A stretch of 20,093 bases of DNA, taken from positions 1-20,093 of IMG/VR virus record IMGVR_UViG_3300042691_000745. One strand, given 5' to 3'. This DNA comes from a virus. The first letter of the stretch is position 1, and each line of letters opens with the position of its first letter. A program made the position numbers and the translations under genes. This document shows, piece after piece, positions 2 through 7,101 of this stretch. Below the pieces are notes generated by a model. It was not told the origin of the DNA and made no database searches. It saw only the letters and a program-made list of their open reading frames with translations.

Positions 2-202
2 ATGGACGCACAAAACCAAGAAACTCTGAAGCAAATGTTGGATGGTGCTTCAATACTTACTGTTATTGGAACACTCGTGGAATTCTTACCAGCCGTCTCC
101 GCGCTTCTCAGTATTGTTTGGGTGGCAATCCGTATCTACGAAACAGATACAGTTAAACGACTCATGGGTCGCAAGGAAGGCAGCGATGCCGAGCAAGAGT
201 AA
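2..202 (+). CDS. Small holin-like membrane peptide
   Basis: A 66-residue peptide with a polar N-terminus (about 1-16), a long hydrophobic stretch from about residue 17 to 43 broken by a Glu-Phe-Leu-Pro turn near 27-30, and a charged tail rich in K/R/E/D. That is the general architecture of small phage holins with one or two helices, which form holes in the inner membrane at lysis (T7 gp17.5 is of similar size). The first ATG is at base 2, so no ribosome-binding site is visible and the gene could begin upstream of the window. Its stop overlaps the next gene by 17 bases. No sequence signature proves holin activity, and the main lysis block lies 14 kb away, so it could be an unrelated virion or membrane peptide. 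Confidence 0.55.
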   Translation: MDAQNQETLKQMLDGASILTVIGTLVEFLPAVSALLSIVWVAIRIYETDTVKRLMGRKEGSDAEQE

Positions 203-551
203 GAAGCAACACAATTTCATGGCAGCGGTGGCCAACAATCCAGCGTTTGCTAAGAAGGTAGGAGTCCCACAGTCCGTGGGCAAAGATTTTTCAAACGCCG
301 ATAAAGGCAAAACTTTTAAAAGAGGTGGTGATATGGCAACGAAAATGAACCCCGGTTTTATGGCAATGATAGCTAAGAAAAAAGCTGGAGCCAAATCAGA
401 GACGCCTTCTAAGATGGGCAAGCCTGTGATGAAAAAAGGCATGGACACCGCCAAAGACGGCATGAAGATGGCTAAAGGTGGCGGCATTGAAGCCAAGGGT
501 AAAACCAAAGGTAAGATGGTCAAAATGAACAAGGGCGGCAAAAGCTGCTAA
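186..551 (+). CDS. Small basic Lys/Gly/Met-rich protein with C-terminal KGKTKG tag
   Basis: 121 residues. I chose ATG 186 because AAGGAAGG at 173-180 sits five bases upstream; the frame is open further upstream but without support. The N-terminal part (KKQHNFMAAVANNPAFAKK followed by VGVPQSVGKDF, residues about 6-36) is a compact helical motif that I remember from many environmental phage proteins of unknown function. The rest is low complexity, very basic and rich in K, G and M, ending in KGGGIEAKGKTKGKM and then KGGKSC. The KGKTKG element recurs in the next three genes. The charge suggests binding to nucleic acid or to acidic partners, but no function is established. It overlaps the upstream gene by 17 bases. 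Confidence 0.8.
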   Translation: MPSKSKKQHNFMAAVANNPAFAKKVGVPQSVGKDFSNADKGKTFKRGGDMATKMNPGFMAMIAKKKAGAKSETPSKMGKPVMKKGMDTAKDGMKMAKGGGIEAKGKTKGKMVKMNKGGKSC

Positions 552-563
552 AAGGGGTTAGTC

Positions 564-1142
564 ATGGCAAAAGCAAGAAACTTAGCAGCATTGGCAGGAC
601 TCGCGGGTCTTGCTTATGCCATGCGGAATAAAGACGACGCGGGCGAGCAAAAGACAAGTTCTTACGCACCCTCTAGCAACATGACTCCGATGCAAGGTGT
701 GGGAGATGCAACAAACGACGTAGTAACGCACGGAAGCTCATATACTGGTCGTAACAACCAGACCCCGATGCAAGGTGTAGGCGACGCAACAGACGATGGC
801 ATTCGTTCTGTGGCTAAATCTAAAACGGCCACAACTACTCGCACTCCTAGTACTCCAGCAAATCCTAGCGTCAGATCCGATCAGCTTCGTGGACTATCCA
901 GCGCAGTAAAGCGCGAAGCAAAAACAAAACAATTTGCTCAAGATACCCCCGAAGAGTTGAGTGCACAAAAAACTGATGCGCTTGCGGTATCGTCTCGCGC
1001 CGCTAGAGCGGCTGATGCTCGTAGACGTATGGCTAAACAAAGTTCATATAAGTCTGGCGGTATGGTGTCCAAAGGGTCGTCTGCTTCCAGTCGCGCAGAT
1101 GGCATCGCCACTAAAGGCAAAACACGCGGAAAGATTTGTTAA
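564..1142 (+). CDS. Small protein with duplicated TPMQGVGDAT motif and C-terminal KGKTRG tag
   Basis: 192 residues; AAAGGGG at 551-557 precedes ATG 564. The N-terminus (about residues 3-20) is an Ala/Leu/Gly-rich hydrophobic or amphipathic helix. A 12-residue motif, TPMQGVGDAT followed by N/D-D, occurs twice (bases 684-719 and 762-797) with a period of 26 residues. The middle is Ser/Thr/Ala/Lys rich. The C-terminus carries SSASSRADG, then KGKTRGKIC, which matches the tags of the neighbouring genes. No enzyme motif is visible and the function is unknown. By position among structural genes it may be a minor virion component. The stop is followed after two bases by the next start. Confidence 0.75.
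   Translation: MAKARNLAALAGLAGLAYAMRNKDDAGEQKTSSYAPSSNMTPMQGVGDATNDVVTHGSSYTGRNNQTPMQGVGDATDDGIRSVAKSKTATTTRTPSTPANPSVRSDQLRGLSSAVKREAKTKQFAQDTPEELSAQKTDALAVSSRAARAADARRRMAKQSSYKSGGMVSKGSSASSRADGIATKGKTRGKIC
684..797 (+). repeat. Two copies of a 36-nt coding repeat (TPMQGVGDAT)
   Basis: Copies at 684-719 and 762-797, 78 bases apart start to start. Both encode TPMQGVGDAT plus two residues (ND or DD). The DNA copies differ mainly at third positions (GTGGGAGATGCA against GTAGGCGACGCA), so the peptide appears conserved by selection rather than by recent duplication. Confidence 0.8.
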
Positions 1143-1144
1143 TC

Positions 1145-1399
1145 ATGAACGACGATCTGGAAAAGAACAAACAAGCCCCCCAAGACATTGATGGCGCATC
1201 TGCTGGGCGTAAGTTTGGCAAGAATGAACCTAATGTGCCGGAGCAACCCGGTAGCCGCATTCGTGTTGATGGTAAACCTGTAAAACCCGAGAAAAAAATG
1301 GCTAAGGGCGGTTCAGCCTCTAGCCGTGCTGACGGCTGTTGTGTTAAGGGCAAAACCAAAGGCACTATGGTTGGAATGAAAAGCGGCGGGATGTGCTGA
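1145..1399 (+). CDS. Small basic protein with C-terminal ADG/KGKTKG tag
   Basis: 84 residues. An in-frame TTG lies at 1136, but ATG 1145, two bases after the upstream stop, is the natural start; GGAAAG at 1128-1133 could be a weak ribosome-binding site. The first 45 residues are hydrophilic and mixed in charge (D, E, K, P). The remainder is KKMAKGGSASSRADG, then KGKTKGTMVG, ending SGGMC. About half of the protein is therefore the shared tag. No known domain is recognised. Its job is probably linked to that of the three other tag-bearing genes around it. Confidence 0.7.
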   Translation: MNDDLEKNKQAPQDIDGASAGRKFGKNEPNVPEQPGSRIRVDGKPVKPEKKMAKGGSASSRADGCCVKGKTKGTMVGMKSGGMC

Positions 1400-1400
1400 C

Positions 1401-1874
1401 ATGGCTACAAACAGACCAAGGCGCGGAGATGATTTAACCCCCCTTGAAGGTGGCGGTGGCGGTGCTGGCGGCGCAAGCGTCAGAGGTACTAAGTACAGCA
1501 ATCTACCTTCTCTTAGGGGGAATGCTAACGTGGTGGATGATTTTAGGAAGCTGACCGCTCCCCCCACAAAGGCAAAGGGCGCAGCAAGGCGTTCAGTTGA
1601 ACTGGCCGAAGATCGCGCTATGAATAGAATGGCTGTGAGAGCCGCAGGTGCAGCGGGTGCAGGTGCAGCGGCCAAAGCTTTGACCAGTGAAGACAAACCC
1701 AAAAAAGCCGCAGCTAAGTCCGAGGACTACGAAGATATGAGCGGAGATGTTTCCCTAGACCCTTCAAACCCCACTGGCGCTGCTGGCAAAGGTATGAAAA
1801 AAGGTGGCATGACTGCTTCACGTCGCGCTGATGGATGTGCAACTAAAGGCAAAACCAAAGGACGGTTTGTATGA
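1401..1874 (+). CDS. Ala/Gly-rich small protein with C-terminal ADG/KGKTKG tag
   Basis: 157 residues, starting one base after the upstream stop. It opens with a Gly-rich linker (about residues 17-25), has a basic central part, then an Ala-rich helix (AVRAAGAAGAGAAAKAL, about 78-94), an acidic Glu/Asp/Ser stretch, and the C-terminal tag KKGGMTASRRADG then KGKTKGRFV. It is the fourth consecutive gene with this ending, while its N-terminal part is unrelated to the other three. Function unknown; no catalytic motif. It overlaps the next ATG by four bases (ATGA), indicating translational coupling. Confidence 0.72.
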   Translation: MATNRPRRGDDLTPLEGGGGGAGGASVRGTKYSNLPSLRGNANVVDDFRKLTAPPTKAKGAARRSVELAEDRAMNRMAVRAAGAAGAGAAAKALTSEDKPKKAAAKSEDYEDMSGDVSLDPSNPTGAAGKGMKKGGMTASRRADGCATKGKTKGRFV

Positions 1875-2396: not shown

Positions 2397-2599
2397 TGAT
2401 TTCTTTTATTCAAAAACAGCTAGACGCTTCTGAACGCATGTTTGAACTGATGCACAGAGATCACAAAGAACGTATGGAACAGATTGCCATGTGGGCGGAT
2501 ATGAACGACAGCCTTATGCGTAAGTTGGAGGAGCGCGATAAAGAAATTCAACGCCTGCAAGGTCTTTTGATGGCGTATGAGACGGCGGAGAAAATTTAA
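2396..2599 (+). CDS. Short coiled-coil protein
   Basis: 67 residues, almost entirely predicted helix with heptad-like spacing and alternating charge (for example MRKLEERDKEIQRLQGLL, about residues 41-58). The start overlaps the upstream stop by one base (TAATG) and its own stop overlaps the next ATG the same way, so it is translationally coupled on both sides. No family is recognised. A small coiled coil immediately before the connector gene could be a scaffold, chaperone or oligomerisation partner, but nothing in the sequence decides this. Confidence 0.72.
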   Translation: MISFIQKQLDASERMFELMHRDHKERMEQIAMWADMNDSLMRKLEERDKEIQRLQGLLMAYETAEKI

Positions 2600-3525
2600 T
2601 GGCAACAACTTCTGGCGCAACAGGTTTCAACCTAGACCTCACCGAGTTGGTAGAGGAGGCGTTTGAACGCGCCGGTGGTGAAATGCGCACGGGGTATGAC
2701 TTACGTACAGCCAGACGCAGTTTGAATATTATGTTTGCTGACTGGGCAAACCGTGGCATCAACCTGTGGACTATTGAGACCGGCACGATTGACTTTGTGC
2801 AAGGCCAGAACACCTATGCCCTGCCCGACGACACCATTGATTTACTTGAGCACGTGATCCGTACAGGTGCGAACGTAGCTGCAACTCAGGCTGACTTGAG
2901 TATCACGAGAATTAGCGTTTCTACCTACGCTACGATCCCCAACAAGATTACCCAAGCCAGACCTATTCAGGTTTGGATTCAACGGTACAACGGACAAACT
3001 TCGCCGACAGGGATAACCCTAAATGGCGCAATTACAGCCACTTCTACTCAGATTACACTGAACACTGCGGTTGGCTTACCTGCTGCCGGGTTTGTAAAGA
3101 TTGACAATGAGATCATTAATTATGGCTACATAGACGGGAACGTCTTATACAACTGTTTCCGTGGTCAGCAGGATACAACTGCCGCAAGTCACACAAGTAC
3201 GACCGCTGTCTATTGGCAACAAGTCCCCGCGATCACCGTTTGGCCTACCCCAGACAATGCACAGCAATACCAATTTGTGTATTGGCGGCTGCGACGTACC
3301 CAAGACGCAGGCGGCGGTGTCAACATCATGGACGTGCCTTTTAGGTTTTTACCCTGCATGGCGGCTGGCCTGTCGTACTACATCGCTGGAAAGATTCCAA
3401 ATGGCGCGGAACGCATTCCGTTCCTCAAGACGCAGTATGACGAGGCATGGGAACTGGCAGCATACGAAGATCATGAAAAGGCAGCTTTGAGGCTTGTACC
3501 CCGTCAAACTTACATTGGGAGGTAG
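2599..3525 (+). CDS. Head-tail connector / tail-tubular-A-like virion protein
   Basis: 308 residues; GGAG at about 2584-2587 precedes the TAATG start. The N-terminal 100 residues (LDLTELVEEAFERAGGE, then RTARRSLNIMFADWANRGIN) are a helical block typical of connector or tail-tubular-A-like phage proteins, which sit under the portal and close the filled head. The C-terminal part (PFRFLPCMAAGLSYYIAGK to the end) resembles the conserved end of this family. Between them, residues about 141-204 form a Thr-rich beta module (ITATSTQITLNTAVGLPAAG ... IDNEIINY ... CFRG ... AASH) that looks inserted and has a counterpart in the gene at 16356. Assigned from pattern and position, so the exact connector layer is uncertain. 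Confidence 0.6.
   Translation: MATTSGATGFNLDLTELVEEAFERAGGEMRTGYDLRTARRSLNIMFADWANRGINLWTIETGTIDFVQGQNTYALPDDTIDLLEHVIRTGANVAATQADLSITRISVSTYATIPNKITQARPIQVWIQRYNGQTSPTGITLNGAITATSTQITLNTAVGLPAAGFVKIDNEIINYGYIDGNVLYNCFRGQQDTTAASHTSTTAVYWQQVPAITVWPTPDNAQQYQFVYWRLRRTQDAGGGVNIMDVPFRFLPCMAAGLSYYIAGKIPNGAERIPFLKTQYDEAWELAAYEDHEKAALRLVPRQTYIGR
3022..3213 (+). other. Inserted beta-rich module shared with the tail hub
   Basis: Encodes about 64 residues with the plan NGAI-x-TQITL-x-GFxKIDNEIINY-x-CFRGQ-x-AASH. The tail hub at 16356 has a matching segment at about 17035-17240 (INNSVTTITV, ILIDSENISY, CTRGLSGT, AASH). The order of elements is the same, so this appears to be one mobile structural module used in two neighbouring virion proteins. 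Confidence 0.6.
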
Positions 3526-4178: not shown

Positions 4179-4445
4179 ATGGCTAAATTCAGCATGAAAC
4201 AAGGCGGCAAAGAAGTTGGTAATGCCAGCGTCTACGCAGAGCCACACACTATGGACGGTAAGGCTATGAAAATTTCTTCTTCGCCCGGTAAAGAACCCAA
4301 CCACAGCGAAGCTAAAACAGTCAACATGAGCGTTGGCAACATCAGCAAAGCTGCTGGTAATCAGCCTATCAAAACCGACGGCATCAAAATCCGTGGTACT
4401 GGCGCAGCTACTAAAGGTCTGATGGCACGAGGCCCGATGGCATGA
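4179..4445 (+). CDS. Small conserved phage protein (IRGTGAATKG motif)
   Basis: 88 residues. Hydrophilic, with MKQGGKEVGNASVYAEPHT at the start, a middle rich in S/N/K, and the C-terminal KIRGTGAATKG then ARGPMA. I remember that ending from environmental phage proteins near adaptor genes, without a known role. The stop overlaps the adaptor ATG by four bases (ATGA), so the two are probably co-translated. The C-terminal ATKGLMARG is reminiscent of the ATKGKTRG of the earlier tags, but the match is too short to call them homologous. Confidence 0.72.
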   Translation: MAKFSMKQGGKEVGNASVYAEPHTMDGKAMKISSSPGKEPNHSEAKTVNMSVGNISKAAGNQPIKTDGIKIRGTGAATKGLMARGPMA

Positions 4446-5601: not shown

Positions 5602-6177
5602 ATGTTTAACGAAAAAGCAACCTCATCAGACAATGTAAGCGCGGGTTTAGTTGCTCGTACTGGAGCCGACTTTGGAGCGCGTGCAGGCGGCGTGTTTCAT
5701 GTTGAGTGCTTCGATAAAGACGGCAACTTAAAGTGGAGTACCTCCGAACACAACTTGGTTGTAAACCAAGGCTTACAGGACATGAACACCAACTACTTTA
5801 AGGGTTCAACATACACTGCTGCGTTTTTCCTTGGCTTGGTTACTGGCCCCGGTTCAGGTACAACCTTTGCCGCCGCTGACACTTTGGCTTCTAAAGCATG
5901 GACTGAGTTCACAAACTACTCTGGTTCACGCAAGGCAGTGACTTTTGGCACAGCAACAACCGCAGACCCATCGGTCATCAGTAACTCAGCAGCACCATCT
6001 TCGTTCTCCATTTCGGGTGCTGGTGGTGTAGTAGCTGGCGCATTCTTGTGTACCGTGTCCAGTGGCACGGCAGGTGTTTTGTTCTCTGAGTCAGACTTCA
6101 CATCTCCCGGCGATCGCACCGTTGTGTCTGGCGACACTTTAAACGTAACATACACATTCAGCCTTGACGCTGCGTAA
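5602..6177 (+). CDS. Beta-rich virion / fibre-type structural protein
   Basis: 191 residues; AAGGAA immediately after the upstream stop serves ATG 5602. The segment CFDKDGNLKWSTSEHNLVVN followed by QGLQDMNTNYF (about 37-67) is a conserved phage structural motif, followed by FFLGLVTGPG, WTEFTNYS and the C-terminal GDTLNVTYTFSL. The family is common near tail and adaptor genes, role undetermined. The next gene is in the same reading frame, only three bases beyond this TAA, and has no ribosome-binding site, so occasional readthrough or a recently split gene is possible. Confidence 0.7.
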   Translation: MFNEKATSSDNVSAGLVARTGADFGARAGGVFHVECFDKDGNLKWSTSEHNLVVNQGLQDMNTNYFKGSTYTAAFFLGLVTGPGSGTTFAAADTLASKAWTEFTNYSGSRKAVTFGTATTADPSVISNSAAPSSFSISGAGGVVAGAFLCTVSSGTAGVLFSESDFTSPGDRTVVSGDTLNVTYTFSLDAA

Positions 6178-6180
6178 CGT

Positions 6181-7101
6181 GTGTTTGCTGATGCACCATT
6201 TGCCACAGTCCCATTTGCTGCACGAGGTGCGGGTGGGCAGGTTATTGATAGCGCGGTTGTAGAGTCTGCAACAGCTTCGGATGCAGTAGCTGCCCTTGCA
6301 ATATTCTTGGCGGCGGTTACAGAGGCTTCAGCGGTATCAGACAGCGTAGCTGTTGCGGCTTCTAACTTTATTGCTGACATTGCAGAAACTGTTGTTATTG
6401 GGGACGCTCCAAGCGCCTTGGTTGACTTTATCTCTTCGGTAGAGGAGTTTGCCGCAGCACAAGATTCCGCCAGCAGTCTGGTTGATTTCAGTAGCTCAAT
6501 AAGTGAGTCTGCGACAGGGGTAGATAGCGCCTCTTCACTGGCTGACTTTGTCAGTTCAATCTCAGAATCTGCTACCGCATCCGACTCAGCCGCAGCTTTT
6601 GCTGACTTTTTGGCGGCAGTGCTTGAAACTGCCACGGCCTTGGACTCCTCCAGCGCCACAACAACTTTCCCTGCCAACGTAGATGAGAGCGTCACGGCTT
6701 CAGATGCAGTTAGCGCACAAGCGGAATTTTCGGTGTCTGTTGAAGAAACTGTTACCGGCTCTGACAGTGTTCTGGTGGCTCCGTCCACCTTTAATGCAGC
6801 AATCGATGAAACTGCCCAAGCCCTTGATTCCGTCTTGGCAAGTGCGGTCTTTTTTGCTACCATTACGGAAGGCGCGGTAGCTGCCGACCAGATCATTGCG
6901 CGGCTGCTTTGGGAGATCATCAACGATGCTCAAACGGCAAACTGGGGCAACATCAACGCCTCGCAGACAACGACTTGGGCCACGGTTGGAACAGCGCAAA
7001 CAGTTAGTTGGCAGACAATTAACGATGCTCAAAACGCCGGATGGACAGTGATCTACGACGGTCAGACAGATACGTGGCAAGTAGTAAAAACGCAGGGTTG
7101 A
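6181..7101 (+). CDS. Tandem-repeat virion/fibre protein (20-residue and 11-residue repeats)
   Basis: 306 residues from GTG 6181, with no Shine-Dalgarno sequence upstream; translation probably depends on coupling to the preceding gene, which is in the same frame. After a short leader (FADAPFATVPFAAR) come about ten units of 20-21 residues (residues 28-229) with the pattern E-[ST]-[AV]-T-x-S-D-S-x-S-A-x-x-x-F-x-x-x-[VI]-x, plus a partial eleventh. Then follow five 11-residue units (247-301) of the form I-N-D-A-Q-T-x-x-W-x-x. Such repeats build long beta or fibrous rods. The position before two fibre genes suggests a tail-fibre or whisker component. The repeats explain the long open frame on the opposite strand, which is not a gene. 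Confidence 0.7.
   Translation: MFADAPFATVPFAARGAGGQVIDSAVVESATASDAVAALAIFLAAVTEASAVSDSVAVAASNFIADIAETVVIGDAPSALVDFISSVEEFAAAQDSASSLVDFSSSISESATGVDSASSLADFVSSISESATASDSAAAFADFLAAVLETATALDSSSATTTFPANVDESVTASDAVSAQAEFSVSVEETVTGSDSVLVAPSTFNAAIDETAQALDSVLASAVFFATITEGAVAADQIIARLLWEIINDAQTANWGNINASQTTTWATVGTAQTVSWQTINDAQNAGWTVIYDGQTDTWQVVKTQG
6262..6867 (+). repeat. About ten 20-residue tandem repeats (60-63 nt units)
   Basis: Units begin at each Glu of the ESATASD-like motif: residues 28, 48, 69, 89, 109, 129, 149, 169, 189 and 210. Two units have 21 residues. Conserved positions are Glu1, Asp7, Ser or Ala8, a Phe near 15 and Val/Ile near 19. Nucleotide identity between units is low, so the array is old and maintained by protein-level selection. 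Confidence 0.8.
6919..7083 (+). repeat. Five 11-residue tandem repeats (33 nt units)
   Basis: Units read INDAQTANWGN, INASQTTTWAT, VGTAQTVSWQT, INDAQNAGWTV and IYDGQTDTWQV. Gln5 and Trp9 are invariant. This is a second, distinct repeat class directly after the 20-residue array in the same protein. Confidence 0.85.

What the first reader, a model, noticed from the sequence alone, without database searches (positions are those of the whole stretch)
186..1874. Four consecutive proteins with unrelated N-termini share one basic C-terminal tag
The genes at 186, 564, 1145 and 1401 all end in a KGG-type linker and KGKT[KR]G-x-[MIF]; the last three also carry S-R-A-D-G just before it. DNA of the tags is similar but not identical (AAAGGCAAAACCAAAGG-like cores), and the N-terminal parts do not align. 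A common short C-terminal tag on otherwise different proteins looks like a targeting or packaging signal, for example loading minor proteins into the capsid or onto DNA, or a docking site for one partner. The sorting idea is inference; the shared tag is directly visible. Weaker KGG or YAEGG relatives occur at 1871, 3964 and 18986.
Basis: partly seen in the sequence, partly recalled or inferred. Interest (0 to 1): 0.72.

Follow-up and report, generated by a model that had tools for sequence, protein, structure and literature searches.

The report
Shared C-terminal tag on phage proteins
A family of mostly uncultured water phages attaches the same short C-terminal peptide to dozens of otherwise unrelated small proteins encoded beside their capsid genes, probably as an address label that docks them onto one partner in the virus head, though that docking has not been shown.

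Summary
The tag is real and far wider than the four genes reported. In contigs related to the window, motif-free clustering of C-termini gives one dominant class: 344 genes with 61 N-terminal families on 158 contigs. The consensus is S-x-R-A-D-G-[CI]-A-x-[KR]-G-K-T-[KR]-G-x-[MIF]-[VIC], at or within about 15 residues of the stop. In 69 loci holding both landmarks, 223 tagged ORFs lie between the major capsid and head-tail adaptor genes and 2 outside. Synonymous sites vary, so the peptide is conserved, not the DNA. The tag is a separable module: 76 DUF6321-like proteins end at W-x-C, 38 carry the tag or a variant after it. A sister tag, RG-x-GAA-x-[RK]G, sits on 41 N-terminal clusters. Family libraries hold no model of the tag, the PDB gave no match, and my literature searches found no description. 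Best mechanism (about 0.5): a docking or head-loading label for accessory basic proteins, working like T4 capsid-targeting sequences or encapsulin cargo peptides but not a member of either. A DNA-binding tail is the main rival. No virion proteomics was available.

The parts
186..551 (+). gene 1 (121 aa): N-terminal phrog_16759-type domain plus degenerate tag
   Evidence: PHROG match 5.9e-22 over residues 1-45
474..548 (+). degenerate tag KGGGIEAKGKTKGKMVKMNKGGKSC (no RADG)
   Evidence: sequence; full tag present in homologues such as L077:7272-7805
564..1142 (+). gene 2 (192 aa): conserved N-terminal hydrophobic helix, variable low-complexity middle, tag
   Evidence: alignment of ten homologues; low-confidence model with helix 2-21 and coil at the tag
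1077..1139 (+). tag SSASSRADGIATKGKTRGKIC, ends at the stop codon
   Evidence: sequence; invariant in ten homologues at A174 S175 R177 A178 D179 G180 G185 K186 T187 G189
1145..1399 (+). gene 3 (84 aa; a TTG start at 1136 would give 87 aa): tag near the C-terminus
1313..1396 (+). tag SASSRADGCCVKGKTKGTMV followed by GMKSGGMC
1401..1874 (+). gene 4 (157 aa): conserved LEGGG N-terminus, helical middle, tag
   Evidence: alignment of 25 homologues, whose invariant columns all lie in the tag and the GG just before it; low-confidence model
1809..1871 (+). tag MTASRRADGCATKGKTKGRFV, ends at the stop codon
4179..4445 (+). gene downstream of the adaptor with a related C-terminal motif
   Evidence: one family on about 120 contigs
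4371..4442 (+). sister motif KTDGIKIRGTGAATKGLMARGPMA at the C-terminus
   Evidence: same spacing R-x2-G-x-A-x-[RK]-G-x3-[RK]-G as the RADG tag
2599..3525 (+). head-tail adaptor gene bounding the tagged cluster
   Evidence: Pfam PF24175 SU10_adaptor, 31.4 bits, cut-off 27

Best explanation
The peptide is a portable C-terminal docking motif. Shown from sequence: it is a linear module of about 20 residues on the C-terminus of many unrelated, mostly basic and low-complexity proteins encoded between the major capsid gene and the head-tail adaptor gene, and it is selected at the protein level. Inferred: one conserved partner present during head assembly (inner face of the capsid protein, portal or scaffold) binds the tag, so several accessory proteins are loaded into or onto the head, and some may be ejected with the DNA. 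The N-terminal part would be the variable payload and the tag the constant address, as in T4 internal proteins with capsid-targeting sequences and in encapsulin cargo.
For: 344 genes with 61 N-terminal families share it. 223 of 225 tagged ORFs lie between capsid and adaptor genes in 69 loci, every locus having 1-6; the capsid gene matches phrog_371. Strictly C-terminal. Non-basic A, D, G and T are as conserved as the basic residues. Tag identity stays 74% when homologous bodies are only 37% identical, and is similar (75%) between non-homologous proteins of one contig. Synonymous sites are not conserved. DUF6321 exists with and without the tag. Head genes of several cultured relatives occur without any tagged protein in the regions read, so the set looks accessory. 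Analogy in the literature: T4 capsid-targeting sequences (PMC9026906) and C-terminal encapsulin targeting peptides (PMC8346489).
Against: No proteomics, binding or localisation data. The partner is not identified. The peptide is basic and Gly-rich, so DNA binding is possible. Higher concordance within a contig is small (75% against 72%) and can come from recent duplication. Natural CAIRGKTRA* versions lack the last residues.
Confidence: 0.5

Rival explanations
1. DNA-binding tail: the basic Gly-rich peptide binds phage DNA (backbone or minor groove), so tagged proteins coat, condense or travel with DNA without a protein partner.
For: Tag is basic, with three to five Lys/Arg in the last 16 residues; bodies of tagged proteins are more basic than other genes (7.6 against 3.2 net charge per 100 aa) and richer in disorder-promoting residues.
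Against: Invariant A, D, G and T would not be needed for general charge binding; the acidic D is nearly invariant. Placement is strictly C-terminal and one per protein. No AT-hook or other DNA-binding family matches.
Confidence: 0.25
2. Paralogue remnant: the tagged genes are tandem duplicates whose bodies diverged beyond recognition, and the tag is only the part that evolves slowest.
For: Tagged genes are adjacent; single-linkage joins many of them into a few large clusters; four-fold sites are slightly more alike within a contig.
Against: DUF6321 and the phrog_16759 domain have their own untagged families elsewhere, so at least these gained the tag. It would still need a function to keep the tag.
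Confidence: 0.12
3. Host-side signal: the tag acts after delivery or late synthesis in the cell, for example as a host-protein docking site or a stability or turnover signal.
For: Strict C-terminal placement is typical of such signals; the bodies look like accessory proteins.
Against: Confined to the head gene block; not seen in early or replication regions of long records. No defence or counter-defence family matches.
Confidence: 0.08
4. DNA or RNA element: the repeated nucleotide core, not the peptide, is what is conserved.
Against: At shared four-fold codons third positions match 38% between genomes, near the 26-38% given by composition; always in one frame and at the C-terminus.
Confidence: 0.02

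Closest known systems
[quoted passage not shown]
   Same: Short terminal peptide shared by otherwise divergent small basic proteins, some not essential; suggested as a way for T4-like phages to take up various proteins into the head (PMC9026906)
   Different: CTS is N-terminal, 10 residues, removed by protease gp21, and acts through the core; here the peptide is C-terminal, longer, without sequence resemblance, and neither cleavage nor incorporation is known
Encapsulin family 1 targeting (cargo-loading) peptides
   Same: Short C-terminal peptide on different cargo proteins encoded beside an HK97-type shell gene (PMC8346489)
   Different: Published consensus SDGSLGIGSLKRS does not match the tag; shell here is a phage major head protein; cargo here is small orphan proteins, not enzymes
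DUF6321 (PF19846) and phrog_16759 terminal domains of phage proteins
   Same: Small domains found at protein ends in several phage families; here they form bodies of tagged proteins
   Different: They are separate domains; the tag begins after their end and is not part of their models
RG-x-GAA-x-[RK]G C-terminal motif of related phages (described here)
   Same: Same spacing of Arg, Gly and Ala, same C-terminal placement, many N-terminal families, same phage lineage
   Different: Different residues; found mainly beside portal and adaptor genes; not seen together with the RADG form

Membership tests
T4-type capsid-targeting sequence | N-terminal position | tested here: not met
   the tag is C-terminal in essentially all cases
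T4-type capsid-targeting sequence | shared by several divergent small proteins of the head block | tested here: met
   61 N-terminal families; 223 of 225 between capsid and adaptor genes
T4-type capsid-targeting sequence | directs incorporation into the prohead and is cleaved by the prohead protease | not testable with these tools
   needs virion proteomics
Encapsulin C-terminal targeting peptide | matches consensus SDGSLGIGSLKRS | tested here: not met
   tag consensus SxRADG[CI]Ax[KR]GKT[KR]Gx[MIF][VIC] compared by eye with the consensus in PMC8346489
Encapsulin C-terminal targeting peptide | binds the inner face of the neighbouring HK97-type shell protein | not testable with these tools
   a capsid gene is nearby but binding was not examined
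AT-hook or other known DNA-binding tail | match to a known DNA-binding family | tested here: not met
   no Pfam match in the window's tagged proteins or representatives
P-loop (Walker A) | GxxxxGK[ST] within a strand-loop-helix fold | tested here: not met
   the string G-x4-G-K-T matches literally, but variants with H or F in place of K occur, the sister tag lacks it, the modelled tags are coil at low confidence and no NTPase family matches

The most novel reading that the evidence does not exclude
A C-terminal virion address label: a phage lineage uses one short peptide, with sublineage-specific dialects, to load an interchangeable set of accessory proteins into its head for delivery to the host; a natural modular cargo system in mostly uncultured aquatic phages, independent in sequence of T4 CTS and encapsulin peptides.
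Probability: 0.35. Interest if true: 0.82.

Novelty: new variant of a known kind. Interest (0 to 1): 0.63.

Why it matters
If the tag is a head-loading label, the tag alone would identify the head-associated or injected accessory proteins of a widespread aquatic phage group whose genes are nearly all of unknown function, and it would show that terminal capsid-targeting peptides arose more than once. If it instead binds DNA, it defines a large class of phage DNA-associated proteins. Either way it gives a testable handle on dozens of orphan protein families.

Tried and rejected
(1) Translated searches of cultured phage records with gene 1401 and with tag sequences: no match. The only cultured-phage records found with a RADG-like tag are MinM2, Pag-Yong1 and Pra-JY27 (RDGCAKRGRTKGRFI); HTVC023P gp51 carries the sister motif. 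(2) The first viral scan used a pattern one base out of frame; kept as a negative control. (3) Pfam, PHROGs, NCBIfam and PADLOC: no model of the tag. (4) PDB sequence searches with the tag profile and three proteins: no usable match. (5) Literature: nothing on the motif. (6) AlphaFold2 of two tagged families: low confidence, tag coil; no fold search was run on such models. (7) Walker A reading rejected because natural variants replace K with H or F. (8) A recalled resemblance to small ribosomal protein Thx: the tag profile matched no PDB chain at E<=10. (9) DNA-element reading rejected by synonymous variation. (10) The genome-contig scan returned mostly chance hits; its real tags lie on contigs binned into MAGs. 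(11) Translated searches for sister-tag proteins in cultured phages gave nothing, perhaps because of low-complexity filtering.

Full report
OBSERVATION. The four ORFs are real and the tag is as described, with corrections. Genes 564 and 1401 end exactly with the tag. Gene 1145 has eight more residues after KGKTKGTMV. Gene 186 has a degenerate copy without RADG. No Pfam, PHROG or NCBIfam model matches the tag region.

HOW WIDE IT IS. Among 80 relatives fetched by the adaptor protein, 53 have a strict tag ORF, often several per contig. In 24 long records (36-65 kb) every one has 1-6 profile hits, clustered within a few kilobases. Of 254 tagged ORFs, 189 end exactly 3 residues after the final [KR]G. 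A motif-free clustering of the last 16 residues of 3,101 genes found one dominant class: 344 genes, 61 N-terminal families, 158 contigs. Counting strict-pattern ORFs only, with the tag cut off, 242 N-terminal parts fall into 72 clusters. Variants include CAIRGKTRA* (13 genes in 9 families), RGKTRCKMY* and an extension ending in CGGGM-x-K.

NOT CHANCE, NOT A DNA ELEMENT. The loose motif R-x2-G-x-[AVC]-x-[RK]-G-x2-4-[RK]-G is in 399 of 15,181 tails but 2 of 27,726 internal windows, with 0.8 expected from shuffled tails. At shared four-fold codons third positions match 38% between genomes and 46% within one contig, against 26-38% from composition for the common codons, so selection is on the peptide. 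Homologous bodies at 37% identity still share 74% of tag residues, about the same as tags on non-homologous proteins of one contig (75%; 72% between contigs; 2 of 500 shuffles reach the within-contig value).

A SEPARABLE MODULE. One tagged family is DUF6321 (PF19846). Across the loci 76 DUF6321-like proteins stop exactly at the W-x-C end of the domain and 38 continue with the tag or a variant: 32 by pattern, plus six scored 'other tail' that read as tag variants. Pelagiphage HTVC023P gp43 and phage DSL-LC04 WJZ48056 are untagged examples. Gene 186's N-terminal domain exists alone in phiKZ-like phages (86% identity over 42 aa). The tag is therefore not simply the remnant of one duplicated gene, although tandem duplication may contribute.

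WHERE IT SITS. In 69 loci holding both landmarks, 223 tagged ORFs lie between the major capsid gene and the adaptor and 2 outside; that interval is 31% of the sequence searched. The capsid gene matches phrog_371 major head protein. Of 98 tag-scan loci, 95 share core genes with the window; the other three are short fragments. By capsid protein the lineage is related to Synechococcus phage MinM2, Planktothrix phage Pag-Yong1 and HTVC023P-type pelagiphages. MinM2 and Pag-Yong1 carry one tagged protein, ending RDGCAKRGRTKGRFI. In the regions read for CRP-901, HTVC027P, Alcaligenes phage QDWS535 and Caulobacter phage GB2A no tag was seen, so the tagged set looks accessory.

A SISTER TAG. Window gene 4179 ends RGTGAATKGLMARGPMA (a class of 120 genes on 120 contigs). 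Two further scans gave 201 usable ORFs with RG-x-GAA-x-[RK]-G in 41 N-terminal clusters; every one of the 202 motifs found ends 5-8 residues from the stop. The RG-x-GAA-x-[RK]G-xx-[FY]-x-G form is in 112 loci, 106 of which share core genes with the window lineage; the nearest core gene is most often the portal, then the adaptor. RADG and this form were not seen together except on one contig fetched twice (L122, L203), where the second motif appears to be the gene-4179 type caught by a loose pattern. The way loci were fetched, and phylogeny, both contribute to this exclusivity.

MECHANISM. Shown: a portable, C-terminal, protein-level-conserved linear motif on accessory, basic, low-complexity proteins of the head gene block. 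Inferred: a common partner in the head binds it. The conserved non-basic A, D, G and T argue for a specific pocket. Structure prediction gives coil for the tag and low confidence overall. T4 CTS (PMC9026906) and encapsulin targeting peptides (PMC8346489) are the nearest working analogies; membership in either is not claimed, because position fails for the first and consensus for the second. DNA binding remains a serious alternative. I put head docking at 0.5, DNA binding at 0.25, and the rest below.

LIMITS. Gene calls are mechanical ORFs. Clustering thresholds are permissive, so family counts are approximate and singletons may include distant homologues. Viral scans were capped, so abundances are lower bounds. 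Expression, proteomics and binding could not be examined. Negative statements about cultured relatives rest on the regions fetched, not on whole genomes.

Noticed in passing
window 186-320 (+): First 42 residues of gene 186 are 86% identical to a 58-aa protein of phiKZ-like Pseudomonas phages (PA7 AFO71011) and match the N-terminus of large PHROG 'virion structural proteins' (phrog_22033, phrog_25121): an N-terminal module shared across very distant phages.
   Followed up: partly
L054:1618-1938 and PHROG profiles: DUF6321 lies at the extreme C-terminus of several different PHROG families (profile ends 928/928, 336/336, 372/372, 525/525, 141/141), so it may itself be a C-terminal module.
   Followed up: no
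L128:4977-5306, L170:3825-4199, L180:6837-7211; L317:7644-8009: An EF-hand or dockerin-like loop (DLTGDGKITRADVLKGRG) occurs inside one tagged family, and HTVC023P gp53 starts with a similar loop (LDKNKDGKISGEDF).
   Followed up: no
L141, L190, L132, L133, L160, L126, L169, L217, L198: A recurrent shortened tag ends in GKT[KR]A*, mostly CAIRGKTRA*, on 13 genes of 9 N-terminal families; a natural test of which residues matter.
   Followed up: no
L207:3321-3866, L113:3050-3331: A third C-terminal motif (KGWGKARGARAAKVY / RGWGIARGARKAKMR) replaces the RADG tag on a homologue of a tagged family.
   Followed up: no
window 6181-7101 (+) and 5916-6923 (-): A 306-aa repeat-rich ORF (recurring SAT-x-SDSA-like units) with a long 335-aa ORF on the opposite strand; probably a by-product of the codon bias of the repeats.
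   Followed up: no
L289:162-2003 (-): The tag is fused to a large membrane acyltransferase-like ORF in a Patulibacter MAG contig; possibly an assembly chimaera.
   Followed up: no
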